Of a stretch of DNA of 64,000 nt, positions 43,286 through 63,003 are shown piece after piece. The stretch lies in NCBI GenBank assembly GCA_947650285.1, contig CANTFL010000570.1:62001-126000 (forward strand), given 5' to 3'. A program made the position numbers and the translations under genes. The notes under the pieces are model-generated. The model was not told the DNA's origin. It ran no database searches and saw only the letters and a list, made by a program, of their open reading frames with translations. Every line of letters starts with the position of its first letter. Within the stretch, counting starts at the first letter, position 1. The DNA is from Hyaloperonospora brassicae (Eukaryota; Oomycota; Peronosporomycetes; Peronosporales; Peronosporaceae).

Positions 43286-44074
43286 GCGGTCGGAAGTAGT
43301 CGGAGAGAGAGCGAGACACATTGTGAGTGGGCGACTGAACCGGTAGGCGGTGGAAAAGAGGACACTTGAGTGCGGACAGCGTGCGCGACGATAGTGTGTT
43401 CGTTGCGTCTTCGGCTTTGTACGACTGTTGCACACGCGATCGAACAACACGGGGCGGGGGTTGGAGCGAGACGAGGTACAGTGCGTGCGTGACGAGGCGG
43501 TCGATCATTTTGCGGCACTCGATCGTCTCCGTTGGCGCTGAGTGAGTAGTTGGCGGCACGTGTTGAACATAATATGTGCCCAACATCGCAGCATCGTCAG
43601 TGTGGAATGGCGACGACTGGGGGTAAACATATATCTCCATCGAGAAACCCGTCTGCTCTATCGACATGTCGTCGTCAGTGATATAGACCCACAAATGTGG
43701 TGAGAAGATGTGAGATAGTGCACCACGTGATCACGAAAAAATGCACTGCCAGATAGGCCGCCGAGCAGAAAAAGCACTAACTAACAAAGAAGAGAATCAA
43801 TTGCAATTCTCAAAAGTTAGCGATGCGCATGCGATGATACTACACAAAAACATTTACGCAATGTAGCTGGAGCTTCCTCTCGATAGAGTCCATTGCCTTC
43901 TGGTGCATTGGGTAAGCCACAAGTGTTCGAGTCCAGCGACTACCTGTACGAAACCTTCTTGACCAAAGCAGGTTCAACTACAACTATATCTGATACAAAC
44001 TGCTCAGTATTTAAACTCCGGTTTTGGTACTGAGCTTGCGGCCTCTCGGCAGGAGTAACCCTATCAAAAAATTG

Positions 44075-44207
44075 CACCTCCCTGTCAAAGTATTACACCT
44101 CCCTGTCAAAGCATTACACCTCCCTGTCAAAGCATTACACCTCCCTGTCAAAGCATTACACCTCCCTGTCAAAGCATTACGCCTCCCTATCAAAGCATTA
44201 CGCCTCC
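44075..44207. repeat. 21-bp minisatellite
   Basis: Just over six tandem copies of a unit like cacctccctgtcaaagcat plus two bases, nearly perfect in the centre and degenerate at both ends. It is open in one frame as a seven-residue repeat (LHLPVKA), but there is no start context, so translation is unlikely. Confidence 0.93.
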
Positions 44208-45085: not shown

Positions 45086-45445
45086 TGTAAGATTGTAGTG
45101 GTGCACTTTGTGCAAAGTAGGTGAAAGTAAAAGTGAATATATTGTGTGTTAAGAACTTGCTTCCTACAACACTACGATATGTACGACCAAAGACGGAAAC
45201 TACAATTATACCATGTCAAGTCTCATGTGGTGACCGTCTCTCCTTGTCCCATGAGACATCCCGTAACATGAAGTCCGTCTTTCCTTGGTCCATGTGACAT
45301 CCTGTCATATGGCGCCCGTCTCTCCCGTCCCATCTATCATTCTGCCACATCATCAGCCAATCAGGTGAGGTCGCACTTACTTGTACCAGGTCTTGCACTT
45401 GACCTTCACAACCTCTTGACTTGTCAGAAAGAGTATATCCTAACA
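45086..45445 (-). repeat. 3' LTR of copia element 1
   Basis: 360 bp, TGTTAG...CTTACA on the element's strand. Contains about 2.4 copies of a 41-bp tandem repeat (45234-45340) in the U3-like part. Confidence 0.92.
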
Positions 45446-48409: not shown

Positions 48410-49051
48410 TTAACGCCCCAAGTTGGAGGCGTATTGAGCATCGAGAAGTCGGATGGTCTTAATGAAACCGAGTGGTTTGACCCGGATCATAGCATTGCCT
48501 TGTTTCGTGGTCCGAAGAGGTCCTCCGTCAGACGCTGCGGTTAAACATTCGTGATTGCAGTCAACCACTTCCTCCAGCAGGCTCAAGTCATTGACCAAAT
48601 GACGCCTCGAATCACTCTCCAGCACCCAGTTGACGATTCTTTGGGTCTGATCTCCGTCCGCATCATGGAATGCGGGGACGAAATCCGCACCGTGTTTTTT
48701 CTTTGGTCTTCTTGTACATAATGCCCTGAGGTGTCCCGTGTTTCCACAGCGGTAACATCTTTTTTGGCCTTGATCCTCAAGACGTTTCTTTACTGGATCA
48801 ACTTTTGTGACCTCCTTTGTCGTCTCCACAACGTTCACAACATCACGGCCGAATTGCTTGACACGGACGTCGATCTCCGTCGATTGTGCGAACTGTGCTA
48901 GTTCTTCAGCTTGTCGCAAGTAGCCGACCCTGTGCAAATAAAAGCGCGAAAGCATCGTCGTGCGCATCTTCGGGTCTGTGTAGTGAAAGATGTTTTCTAA
49001 AACAAGGTTGTCCGCGCCTCCGCAGGCAATGCTCACAGCATTGAGATACAA
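48410..49051 (-). pseudogene. Copia 1 gag C-terminus and altered protease
   Basis: Gag helical part (LVLENIFHYTDPKMRTTML), CCHC zinc knuckle CYRCGNTGHLRALC, then the protease site. The expected W-V-x-D-S-G-A-S-R-H is here WVLESDSRRH: the catalytic Asp is Glu and the DSG triad is lost, so the protease should be dead. Confidence 0.82.
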
Positions 49052-49346
49052 GAAACGTTCCGTCCAATTTCAATGCGACGACTTGGCTGCAATAAACAGC
49101 TTCATGCTCTGATCAGGTGTTATCTTGGTGTTGAAGGTCTGGAGCAACCTTTGCATTGCATGCTCCAAGGTTTGACTCTGAGACTGTTAAGTCTCCACCT
49201 GTCGGCGGTAATACTTATGTGCCGTTCCATCAAATGTTGACCAAGTACATCGGCCTTGATGTCTTCAGACCATACGAAGCCATACGCGCGATTGGAGAAG
49301 CCAATGTCGGCGCACGAACTCCTTGCCTTATTCGATAAAAACCACT

Positions 49347-49940
49347 TTAAAGGCCACGATAGAGTTCCTTTCGATCAAATGGCTGCAACGCCAATTTGCG
49401 CTGACGACCGTCCAGCACACCCATGGGTTCCTGACCTTGGTGTAAAAACATCGAACCTGGTGCACTCACACCTGGATACGGTGCCGTTGGTGCTCCCTGC
49501 ACTCCGGGTGCTGGTCCTGCATTCCTCACATAGTCGCCACGGTCCTGAACCGGTGGATCGACTATGTTTCCAGCAAAAGATGGTCGTCGGGCACCAAAGT
49601 AGGTGGTCGGCGAGATTTTCGGTGACCGCTTGGGAGAAGGAGCACGCTCCAAATTCTGAAGGGTAACACCCTGTCCTGGTCCCAAGGCCGAACCAAAGCC
49701 TATCGACTCCAGAGATTCCTTCCGTTACCGATCGACTTGTTCGAAGTGTGAGGATTCCATCCTGCACATTCGCTCCGACAATCACCCAGCATGACGAGCA
49801 TCTTTTCCGGTGCCGCGGCCGCAGGTACTTCCGACTTTTCACCCAGCTGATTATCAATGGTCTTCGTTTGACCATCGACCACCACAGCGGGTGTGGCTCC
49901 ACGAGCCGCGCCGCCAACACGTCCTGTTGGGCTCATAACC
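49347..49940 (-). pseudogene. Copia 1 gag N-terminus
   Basis: Gag begins MSPTGRVGG at an ATG at 49936, inside the primer-binding site, and continues open to about 49700. The 49347-49685 frame carries Pro-rich gag sequence ending in LQPFDRKELYRGL, close to the usual gag entry motif. A frameshift separates the two parts. Confidence 0.6.
49929..49940 (-). other. Primer-binding site of copia element 1 (initiator tRNA-Met anticodon arm)
   Basis: Reads GGTTATGAGCCC on the element's strand, immediately after the 5' LTR. It is complementary to the anticodon stem-loop of eukaryotic initiator tRNA-Met (GGGCUCAUAACC), as in Drosophila copia, rather than to a tRNA 3' end. It contains the ATG that opens the gag frame. 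Confidence 0.85.
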
Positions 49941-50300
49941 TGTAAGATTGTAGTGGTGCACTCGGTGCAAAGTAGGTGGAAGTAAAAGTGAATATATTGT
50001 GTGTTAAGAACTTGCTTCCTACAACACTACGATGTGTATGACCAAAGACGGAAACTACAATTTTACCATGTCAAGTCTCATGTGGTGACCGTCTTTCTCT
50101 GTCCCATGTGACATCCTGTCACATGAAGTCCGTCTCTCCTTGGTCCATGTGACATCCTGTCATATGGCGCCCGTCTCTCCCGTCCCATCTGTCATTCTGT
50201 CACATCATCAGCCAATCAGGTGAGGTCGCACTTACTTGTACCAGGTCTTGCACTTGACCTTCACAACCTCTTGACTTGTCAGAAAGAGTATATACTAGCA
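49941..50300 (-). repeat. 5' LTR of copia element 1
   Basis: 360 bp, alignable end to end without gaps with 45086-45445 (offset 4855). Followed by the GTTCT duplication at 50301-50305. Confidence 0.92.
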
Positions 50301-58516: not shown

Positions 58517-58762
58517 TGTTGGAAGTCGCATTACATTATGTGTTGAAGTTGTGTGGTGCGTCTTATCAGAAGAGGCACACGCAATGAACCGTTTCGCGGA
58601 CAGGAAGTACTGATGGGATAAATGCGAAGATCTATAAGATACAAGGACGACTCTTCAGAAACCATGGAAAGATATTCAAGCAGCATGTGTCAACCGGACT
58701 AACAACGCTATTATATATTCACTTTTTCATTTCCTCTCTGCGTTGCAGGTCTCTTTCCCACC
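58517..58762 (+). repeat. 5' LTR of copia element 2
   Basis: 246 bp, matching 62758-63003 over its length; the most divergent part is the first 60 bp. Confidence 0.9.
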
Positions 58763-58775
58763 TTTTATGAGCCCA
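58763..58775 (+). other. Primer-binding site of copia element 2 (degenerate)
   Basis: TTTTATGAGCCCA directly after the 5' LTR, a two-base variant of the GGTTATGAGCCC site of element 1. It again contains an ATG that opens MSPTSAN, matching the MSPT start of element 1; here a stop follows after about ten codons. Confidence 0.7.
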
Positions 58776-59643
58776 ACTTCTGCAAATTTGTCGGCAGTAT
58801 AACAAACGTACACCGCTACGGCTTATTTCGCTCTCATGAAAGGAAAGCGATGGAAACGAATCAGCCAAACCTTAAGCCGTAGAAGGGCGAAGACGTTACT
58901 GTTTTGCGCTGCCTTAAAGATGAGCGCAATCTCGACGGATTGGAGCGCCAGGTTTCGCCAAGGCTAGTCATGAGCTCAAGCGATGATCAAGCTCCCTTTC
59001 AAATGGTTCTTGACCCACCATCCCATCGTCCAAGTGCCAGCGGGATTCGAGAAGTCGCCCAGCAAGGGGGCTTGCTCGGAGAGTCTCGCTTGACGCTACA
59101 AGGTATGCACAAAGGCAACGTGCATCTGCTGGTGTGCATAATTTTGCTCACGACATCTTACACGCACAAGCAGCCAGACATCACGTCCCGCAGCCGCCTC
59201 ATTCAAATTTAGGGTCGATGACGAAAGTGCATACCGTGGTGTAGCACAATTTGGTGCTGCCTGGATTGCTGTTCCGAACACAAAGACGTCGAAGATAATG
59301 ATCCAAATATTTACTGGCAAAGAGCTGTACGTCGTACTGGGGTAGCGGTTTTCGTAAATGGGCATTAGTGTTTCTGGAAGCGCTGGAGATGGAGGAGATG
59401 GCCACTGGGTATTGATGGGCGGAGCGTGTCGAGGTAAACAATTCGGGAGAGTACTTGGAAAAAGACTCGACTGCTTCAGACTATTTCCGTAAAGATACGG
59501 CAACTTGGTGGTCTATTGCACCACATTTGGAGTTCATACTCGAAGAAACGTACAAGATATTTAAAGTGACAATGATTCATGAGTAAGCATCAGCCCTTTT
59601 CATGGAGCAAAAGGACCCGTCTCGGACGTGGCCTTAACACCTC

Positions 59644-62757: not shown

Positions 62758-63003
62758 TGTTGGAAGCCACATGACATTTTGTGTTGAAGTTGTATGGTGC
62801 GTCTCAGTGGAAGAGGCACACGCAATGAACCGTTTCGCGGACAGGAAGTACTGATGGGATAAATGCGAAGATCTATAAGATACAAGGACGCCTCTTCAGA
62901 AACCATGGAAAGATATTCAAGCAGCATGTGTCGACCGGACTAACAACGCTAATATATATTCACTTTTTCATTTCCTCTCTGCGTTGCGGGTCTCTTTCCC
63001 ACA
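62758..63003 (+). repeat. 3' LTR of copia element 2
   Basis: 246 bp, preceded by a purine tract (gagacgagaggag, 62745-62757) that fits a polypurine tract. Confidence 0.9.

What the first reader, a model, noticed from the sequence alone, without database searches (positions are those of the whole stretch)
49929..49940. Copia primer-binding site appears to supply the gag start codon
The site GGTTATGAGCCC pairs with the anticodon stem-loop of initiator tRNA-Met. The CAU anticodon therefore corresponds to an ATG in the element, and that ATG opens the gag frame (MSPT...). The second, only distantly similar copia (58763-58775) has the same arrangement and the same MSPT start. If real, priming and translation initiation compete for, or are coupled through, one tRNA-derived sequence, and gag would be almost leaderless after R-U5. 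Use of the anticodon arm as primer is known from Drosophila copia; the overlap with the gag AUG is what I infer.
Basis: partly seen in the sequence, partly recalled or inferred. Interest (0 to 1): 0.75.

Follow-up and report, generated by a model that had tools for sequence, protein, structure and literature searches.

The report
Primer site doubles as gag start
In several families of copia-type retrotransposons of an oomycete genome, the site where an initiator tRNA fragment appears to prime DNA copying also contains the start codon of the first protein, so one short sequence appears to serve both copying and translation.

Summary
The site is real: GGTTATGAGCCC (minus strand, 49929-49940) abuts the 5' LTR of a copia element and is complementary to this genome's own initiator tRNA-Met anticodon arm (16 nt in this copy). 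Both window copies are decayed: element 1 reads MSPT... for 78 codons; element 2 has two PBS mismatches and a stop at codon 12. Genome relatives carry the claim. The 14-mer occurs 363 times (reversed control 0). Among 87 sites in 25 sampled families, the PBS ATG opens at least 100 codons in 10 families, six of them with copia domains above cut-off; one recent copy with identical LTRs has a 1433-codon frame starting there. Leaders before the next Met change length mostly by whole codons, and 40 of 162 homologues, from several oomycete genera, begin exactly MSP. Initiator-like motifs (17 of 51 LTR ends) predict 40-100 nt leaders in which the PBS AUG comes first. It is not universal: two recent families (F0, F9) turn the PBS AUG into a 5- or 8-codon uORF and start gag 42 or 66 nt later. 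Known kind (half-tRNA-primed copia), new variant. Competition between priming and translation is inferred, not shown.

The parts
49929..49940 (-). primer-binding site GGTTATGAGCCC, complement of the initiator tRNA-Met anticodon arm (tRNA 29-40); the match extends to 16 nt (49925-49940)
49934..49936 (-). ATG inside the PBS, opposite the CAU anticodon; ancestral gag start of this family (F1), inferred
49703..49936 (-). open frame from the PBS ATG (MSPTGRVGG..., 78 codons), decayed gag N-terminus; 52% identical over 73 positions to residues 1-71 of relative L035, whose frame is 785 codons; no Pfam hit of its own
48410..49069 (-). gag body fragment of the same element, 62% identical to residues 292-505 of the L035 frame
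49941..50300 (-). 5' LTR of element 1; ends ...CTTACA directly against the PBS
45086..45445 (-). 3' LTR of element 1 (95.3% identical; flanking 5-bp duplication AGAAC)
49985..49991 (-). oomycete INR-like motif TCACTTT, A at -49 from the PBS; predicted transcription start; no ATG between it and the PBS
58763..58774 (+). PBS-like site of element 2, TTTTATGAGCCC (2 mismatches)
58767..58802 (+). MSPTSANLSAV* : frame from the ATG stops at codon 12
58517..58761 (+). 5' LTR of element 2, with INR-like TCACTTT (A at 58721)
62758..63002 (+). 3' LTR of element 2 (about 95% identical)

Best explanation
These are Ty1/copia LTR retrotransposons whose PBS pairs with the anticodon arm of initiator tRNA-Met (half-tRNA, Hemivirus-type priming). 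Because the PBS is the complement of the CAU anticodon loop, it must contain an AUG, and because it lies at or next to the LTR end, that AUG is probably the first one that ribosomes scanning a short AUG-poor R-U5 leader would meet. In several families the element uses it as the gag (or gag-pol) start codon, so the protein begins with the tRNA-dictated tripeptide MSP. Other families neutralise it as a 5- or 8-codon uORF and start gag at the next in-frame AUG. Shown by sequence: the site, its complementarity, the open frames, the mostly frame-preserving leaders, the MSP homologues and the two uORF families. Inferred: the transcription start, that ribosomes initiate at this AUG, that the half-tRNA is the primer, and that annealed primer and initiating ribosome exclude each other on one RNA.
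For: (a) 363 exact 14-mers in 100.56 Mb, reversed control 0; 261 sites read ACA + PBS. (b) Host tRNA-Met gene L051 carries TTGGGCTCATAACCC; 86 of 87 sites match its complement for 14-16 nt, 14 nt being the search criterion. Of 22 long stretches, 16 show an LTR pair, and in 12 of those the LTR ends exactly at the PBS. (c) 25 families in 87 sites; the PBS-ATG frame reaches 100 codons or more in at least one copy of 10 of 25. L091 (F6) has LTRs 100% identical over 310 nt and one 1433-codon frame from the PBS ATG with RVT_2, Pol_BBD, SH3 and gag_pre-integrs hits (no gag_2 or rve hit at E 0.01). Others: L035 785 codons, LTRs 98.9%; L047 717 codons (no LTR pair found in its stretch); L009, L010, L011, L015 and L028 open to the end of the 3-kb locus. 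(d) Pfam on 10 representatives: 6 with copia gag/pol hits above curated cut-off in the PBS frame, 2 with weak hits, 2 with none. In F4 (L044, LTRs 99.8%) a DUF4219 match (E 7e-5, below its cut-off) covers residues 14-39 and the next Met is residue 26, so a later start would lose the FDGSNYGLW segment. (e) Leader indels between PBS ATG and next Met: gap runs in multiples of 3 in 27/27 (F1), 15/15 (F2) and 44/53 (F3) over all pairs used; F4 had no gaps. In 13 disjoint pairs picked by hand, 7 of 8 gap runs, and differences by codon position 94/91/133, p=0.006. (f) 40 of 162 homologues begin exactly MSP (18 of 88; 22 of 74), including Phytophthora, Peronospora and Aphanomyces entries; of 50 that carry a capsid-start motif near the N-terminus with at least 5 residues before it, 28 begin MSP. 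(g) 17 of 51 distinct LTR ends hold TCAYTYY 40-100 nt before the PBS (shuffle mean 1.9, max 7), and 0 of those 17 have an ATG between motif and PBS (mononucleotide shuffle mean 7.2, min 2).
Against: F0 and F9 are recent families in which the PBS ATG does not open gag. Six of the 25 families never exceed 40 codons from the PBS ATG (F0, F9, F13, F18, F22, F24). ORF length alone is only moderate evidence: control frames also reach 100 codons (+2 frame 4 of 25; antisense 7, 3 and 6 of 25). 122 of 162 homologues do not start MSP; many begin at a later Met or are truncated models. In F4 the stronger Pfam domain, Retrotran_gag_2, starts at residue 26, exactly the next Met, so a start there would keep it whole, and some F4 gene models begin there (MKMYL...). 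Nine of 53 F3 gap runs are not multiples of three. ATG scarcity in the leader is partly composition: dinucleotide shuffles of the 17 segments give a mean of 3.1 and reach 0; in the last 60 nt of all 51 ends 11 have an ATG against a dinucleotide-shuffle mean of 18.0, min 10, and GAT is almost as scarce (13 against 11). 34 of 51 ends show no such motif at that distance. In 8 of 87 copies an in-frame ATG lies further up the LTR, among them the F6 copies L017 and L019 (same element as L091) and L035; a lower bound, since the 801-nt loci hold only about 140 nt upstream. So a Ty1-like start inside the LTR is not formally excluded there. No RNA or protein data were available.
Confidence: 0.85

Rival explanations
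1. The PBS AUG is only a by-product of anticodon-arm priming. Ribosomes leak past it or terminate at once, and gag starts at a later Met (for example MDA... in F2, MKM... in F4, or the Met of MSPM in F3).
For: True for F0 and F9. Many public gene models of F2 and F4 relatives begin at the later Met. Retrotran_gag_2 in F4 starts exactly at the later Met. Most F3 copies have a second ATG at codon 4 (6 of 10 with M at position 4, plus L059).
Against: Leader indels mostly keep frame. In F4, of 22 homologues with the FDGxN motif, 16 begin exactly MSP, 12 of them with the motif exactly 13 residues in (counted from the list). Leader peptides are alike across genera (F2: AQDLDHAFAMD in L013; AQDPDYAFAMD in Phytophthora ramorum P0002). 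F3 copies L007 and L009 have no other Met for 68 and 82 codons.
Confidence: 0.12
2. Gag starts further upstream inside the 5' LTR, as in yeast Ty1, and the PBS is simply internal to the gag frame.
For: 8 of 87 copies have an in-frame upstream ATG without a stop, including the F6 copies (frame open to -221; L091 shows the same extension) and L035 (-74).
Against: No such ATG was seen in the other 79 of 87, though only about 140 nt upstream were held for the 801-nt loci. 25 of 87 sites follow TAACA, which puts TAA in frame 3 codons before the ATG. In L035 the ATG at -74 is upstream of the INR-like motif at -58.
Confidence: 0.03
3. The 14-mer and open frames are chance or misassembly, not a PBS.
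For: In the window alone the second, mismatched site is within chance.
Against: 363 against 0 for the reversed control; exact abutment on an LTR in 12 of the 16 long stretches with an LTR pair, with 5-bp duplications in several; match to the host tRNA-iMet.
Confidence: 0.005

Closest known systems
Drosophila copia and yeast Ty5 (Hemivirus, half-tRNA-iMet priming)
   Same: Priming from the anticodon arm of a host tRNA, cDNA starting at nucleotide 40 (passages of PMC1181622; passages of PMC10886601)
   Different: No passage that I read says the PBS AUG opens gag. From recall only, Drosophila copia's gag starts downstream of its PBS. Ty5 was not checked: its primary paper is not held.
Yeast Ty1
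   Same: Short (53-nt) 5' UTR; PBS for tRNA-iMet lies inside the translated region (nt 95-104 of the RNA; passages of PMC5454406)
   Different: Ty1 uses the 3' end of the tRNA, and its AUG lies upstream of the PBS, not inside it
Plant Osser, Bryco and Gymco-II lineages (half-tRNA-Met primers)
   Same: Half-tRNA-Met PBS in Ty1/copia (PMC6317226, section 13 and passages)
   Different: No statement about a start codon in the PBS ('start codon' has 0 occurrences in the main text)

Membership tests
Pseudoviridae (Ty1/copia) | Integrase before reverse transcriptase in one polyprotein, RVT_2-type RT (order recalled as the copia mark) | tested here: met
   Met in relatives L050 and L043: rve before RVT_2 in one frame; both belong to the uORF families. 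L091 has RVT_2 but no rve hit. The window copies are fragments and were not tested.
Pseudoviridae (Ty1/copia) | LTRs with short target duplication | tested here: met
   Element 1 LTRs 95.3% identical with AGAAC duplication; 5-bp duplications also in L035 and L038; LTR pair found in 16 of 22 long stretches
Hemivirus-type (half-tRNA iMet primer) | PBS complementary to the anticodon arm of initiator tRNA-Met | tested here: met
   tRNA gene L051 and match lengths of 14-16 nt in 86 of 87 sites
Hemivirus-type (half-tRNA iMet primer) | cDNA actually primed from the cut tRNA | not testable with these tools
   Needs strong-stop cDNA mapping
Hemivirus-type (half-tRNA iMet primer) | RT phylogeny placing the elements with copia/Ty5 | not tested
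   No tree was built
Ty1-like gag start inside the LTR | In-frame AUG upstream of the PBS used for gag | tested here: inconclusive
   In-frame upstream ATG in at least 8 of 87 copies; use unknown

The most novel reading that the evidence does not exclude
The same tRNA species acts twice on one AUG: initiator tRNA-Met decodes it to start Gag, and a cut half of that tRNA anneals across the same AUG to prime cDNA. Annealing would shut off translation of that RNA, and the tRNA delivered in the initiation complex could even be handed over as primer, giving a built-in translation-to-replication switch that uORF families (F0, F9) have uncoupled.
Probability: 0.2. Interest if true: 0.85.

Novelty: new variant of a known kind. 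Interest (0 to 1): 0.62.

Why it matters
Any element primed by the CAU anticodon loop must carry an AUG right after its LTR. The elements here show two evolutionary answers to that constraint: adopt it as the gag start, or bury it in a micro-uORF. This makes a testable prediction for every half-tRNA-iMet-primed retroelement, offers a compact model of how a retroelement RNA could choose between being translated and being copied, and gives annotators a simple rule (look for MSP at the PBS) for finding likely gag starts in oomycete genomes.

Tried and rejected
Tried without result: two variable-gap tRNA patterns (no match). The initiator gene was then found from GGGCTCATAACCC places and ARAGORN on L051; of the five stretches tested (L051-L055) only L051 gave a tRNA, and the other four look by eye like the PBS read from the other strand. 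Literature: searches for an overlap of start codon and PBS, for a gag AUG with a half tRNA and for Phytophthora copia with a PBS listed no paper whose title or shown abstract reports it; most listed papers were not opened, and the library holds open-licence papers only.

Rejected or weakened: ORF length alone as proof (control frames are also open); ATG depletion as strong proof (partly composition); public gene models as proof of the start (models often choose a later Met); the F4 domain argument as decisive (DUF4219 is below its cut-off and Retrotran_gag_2 starts at the next Met).

Dropped rows: of the 100 listed places, 85 were read; 15 were not fetched (C87, C146, seven on C150, C167, C175, four on C177). 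363 sites exist in all, so the 25 families are a contig-order sample. WIN2, a mismatched site, was added to the sample and is in its counts. In one search only pairs with 3-40% difference were used; the 13 pairs were picked by hand.

Full report
What is there. The reported 12-mer lies on the minus strand at 49929-49940. It abuts the LTR of a copia element that runs right to left: 5' LTR 49941-50300, 3' LTR 45086-45445, 95.3% identical over 360 nt, with the 5-bp duplication AGAAC. The ATG inside it opens MSPTGRVGGAARGATPAVVVDGQ... for 78 codons; further gag lies at 48410-49069. Element 2 (LTRs 58517-58761 and 62758-63002) has TTTTATGAGCCC with two mismatches, and its MSPT frame stops at codon 12. 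Both window copies are decayed, so the claim has to be tested on relatives.

Primer. The window is part of a 100.56-Mb assembly. The best named matches to its retroelement proteins are Phytophthora and Peronospora, so it is an oomycete, probably close to downy mildews (inference). ARAGORN finds a tRNA-Met in L051, one of 22 matches to GGGCTCATAACCC spaced 574 bp apart on contig C874 (only the first was read). Its A1-U72 pair, GGG/CCC anticodon stem and A54 T-loop are initiator marks (marks recalled; letters). Its anticodon arm TTGGGCTCATAACCC is the exact complement of the PBS. Of 87 sites read, 86 match for 14-16 nt (14 being the search criterion; the exception is element 2) and element 1 matches for 16. 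In 7 of 87 the match extends one base upstream (GGGTTATG...), suggesting a primer ending at tRNA position 41 instead of 40.

Genome test. The 14-mer GGTTATGAGCCCAA occurs 363 times, the reversed control 0; ACA plus the PBS occurs 261 times. I read 85 of the first 100 listed places plus the two window sites (the first of which is also one of the 363) and grouped the 87 into 25 families. Of 22 long stretches 16 showed an LTR pair, and in 12 of those the LTR ended exactly at the PBS. The PBS-ATG frame reaches at least 100 codons in the best copy of 10 of 25 families, against 4 of 25 for the +2 frame and 7, 3 and 6 of 25 for antisense frames, so length alone is modest evidence; six families never exceed 40 codons. 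Domain content is stronger. Of 10 representatives scanned, 6 carry copia gag/pol domains above curated cut-offs in the PBS frame, 2 have weak hits (L009, L006) and 2 have none (L068, L033). In the window's own family (F1), L035 reads 785 codons from the PBS ATG with LTRs 98.9% identical, and the window frame aligns to its residues 1-71 at 52% identity over 73 positions. In F6, L091 has LTRs 100% identical over 310 nt and a single 1433-codon frame from the PBS ATG that includes reverse transcriptase, Pol_BBD and gag_pre-integrs but no gag_2 or rve hit at E 0.01; its stop codon begins 21 nt before the 3' LTR. In F4 (L044, LTRs 99.8%) a DUF4219 match (E 7e-5, below its cut-off) spans residues 14-39 and the next Met is residue 26, so a later start would lose the FDGSNYGLW segment; against this, Retrotran_gag_2 starts exactly at residue 26.

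Is the stretch between the PBS ATG and the next Met translated? Over the pairs used (3-40% different), gap runs were multiples of three in 27 of 27 (F1), 15 of 15 (F2) and 44 of 53 (F3), with no gaps in F4; these pairs are not independent. In 13 disjoint pairs picked by hand, 7 of 8 gap runs were multiples of three, and differences by codon position were 94, 91 and 133 (p=0.006). Leader peptides are alike across genera: L013 (F2) reads ...AQDLDHAFAMD..., Phytophthora ramorum P0002 ...AQDPDYAFAMD....

Other species. 40 of 162 homologous proteins begin exactly with MSP (18 of 88, 22 of 74), among them Phytophthora, Peronospora and Aphanomyces entries (one is labelled Colletotrichum by its source). 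Of 50 with a capsid-start motif near the N-terminus and at least 5 residues before it, 28 begin MSP. Among the F4 hits, 22 show the FDGxN motif; 16 of these begin MSP, 12 with the motif exactly 13 residues in (counted from the list). The other 122 of 162 do not begin MSP; many are fragments or models starting at a later Met. That MSP stays while the following residues vary fits a constraint set by the tRNA, not by the protein (inference).

Leader. 17 of 51 distinct LTR ends hold the oomycete initiator motif TCAYTYY 40-100 nt before the PBS, against a shuffle mean of 1.9 and maximum of 7; 34 do not. The INR and FPR motifs are described in PMC3599244 (passages); the IUPAC form TCAYTYY is from recall, the paper giving TCATTCT as the most frequent form. 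None of the 17 has an ATG between motif and PBS: mononucleotide shuffles give a mean of 7.2 (min 2), dinucleotide shuffles 3.1 (min 0). In the last 60 nt, 11 of 51 ends have an ATG, against shuffle means of 25.5 (mono) and 18.0 (dinucleotide, min 10). 25 of 87 sites follow TAACA, which places TAA in frame just before the ATG. So the PBS AUG is probably the first AUG, after a leader of roughly 40-100 nt, not leaderless. At least 8 of 87 copies have an in-frame ATG further up the LTR (loci of 801 nt hold only about 140 nt upstream); in L035 it is upstream of the predicted start.

Exceptions. F0 (16 of 87 sites; LTRs 99.2-99.6% identical in the four copies measured) reads MSPRA* or MSPKA*, with gag starting 42 nt after the PBS ATG. 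F9 (2 of 87; L050 LTRs 100%) reads MSPRTTCY*, with a 1700-codon frame starting 66 nt after it. Both downstream starts are in the same frame as the PBS ATG, which hints (weakly; 1 in 9 by chance) that they derive from PBS-start ancestors. The arrangement is therefore common but not universal.

Mechanism. Shown: sequence overlap, complementarity, open frames, mostly conserved frame. Inferred: initiation at this AUG (about 0.85), priming by the half tRNA, and mutual exclusion of primer and ribosome. The logic is simple: priming from a CAU loop forces an AUG at the start of the internal region, and scanning ribosomes will meet it.

Known context. Half-tRNA priming in copia and Ty5 is described (PMC1181622 passages; [quoted passage not shown] Ty1 has its tRNA site inside the translated region but downstream of the AUG (PMC5454406 passages). 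Searches for a PBS that contains the gag start listed no paper whose title or shown abstract reports it in the open-licence library; most of the listed papers were not opened. Ty5's start was not checked because its primary paper is not held.

Noticed in passing
L051 (G000:C874:112547-124613): GGGCTCATAACCC, the tRNA-Met anticodon arm, recurs 22 times at 574-bp spacing, which looks like a tandem array of initiator tRNA genes; only the first copy was read.
   Followed up: partly
L012, L043 and 14 other F0 loci: Near-identical family in which the PBS AUG forms a five-codon uORF (MSPRA* or MSPKA*) 42 nt before the gag start.
   Followed up: partly
L003, L004, L006, L050, L062, L067, L081: Sites preceded by an extra G (GGGTTATGAGCCC), suggesting a primer ending at tRNA position 41 instead of 40.
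   Followed up: partly
G000:C150:363-26248 and G000:C177:11235-12903: Dense clusters of PBS sites hundreds of bases to several kilobases apart, perhaps tandem or nested short elements.
   Followed up: no
window 44038-44205: 21-bp tandem repeat just below element 1.
   Followed up: no
L062, L067, L081 (F8): In the best copy the +2 frame after the PBS is also open for the whole 217 codons examined, alongside the gag frame.
   Followed up: no
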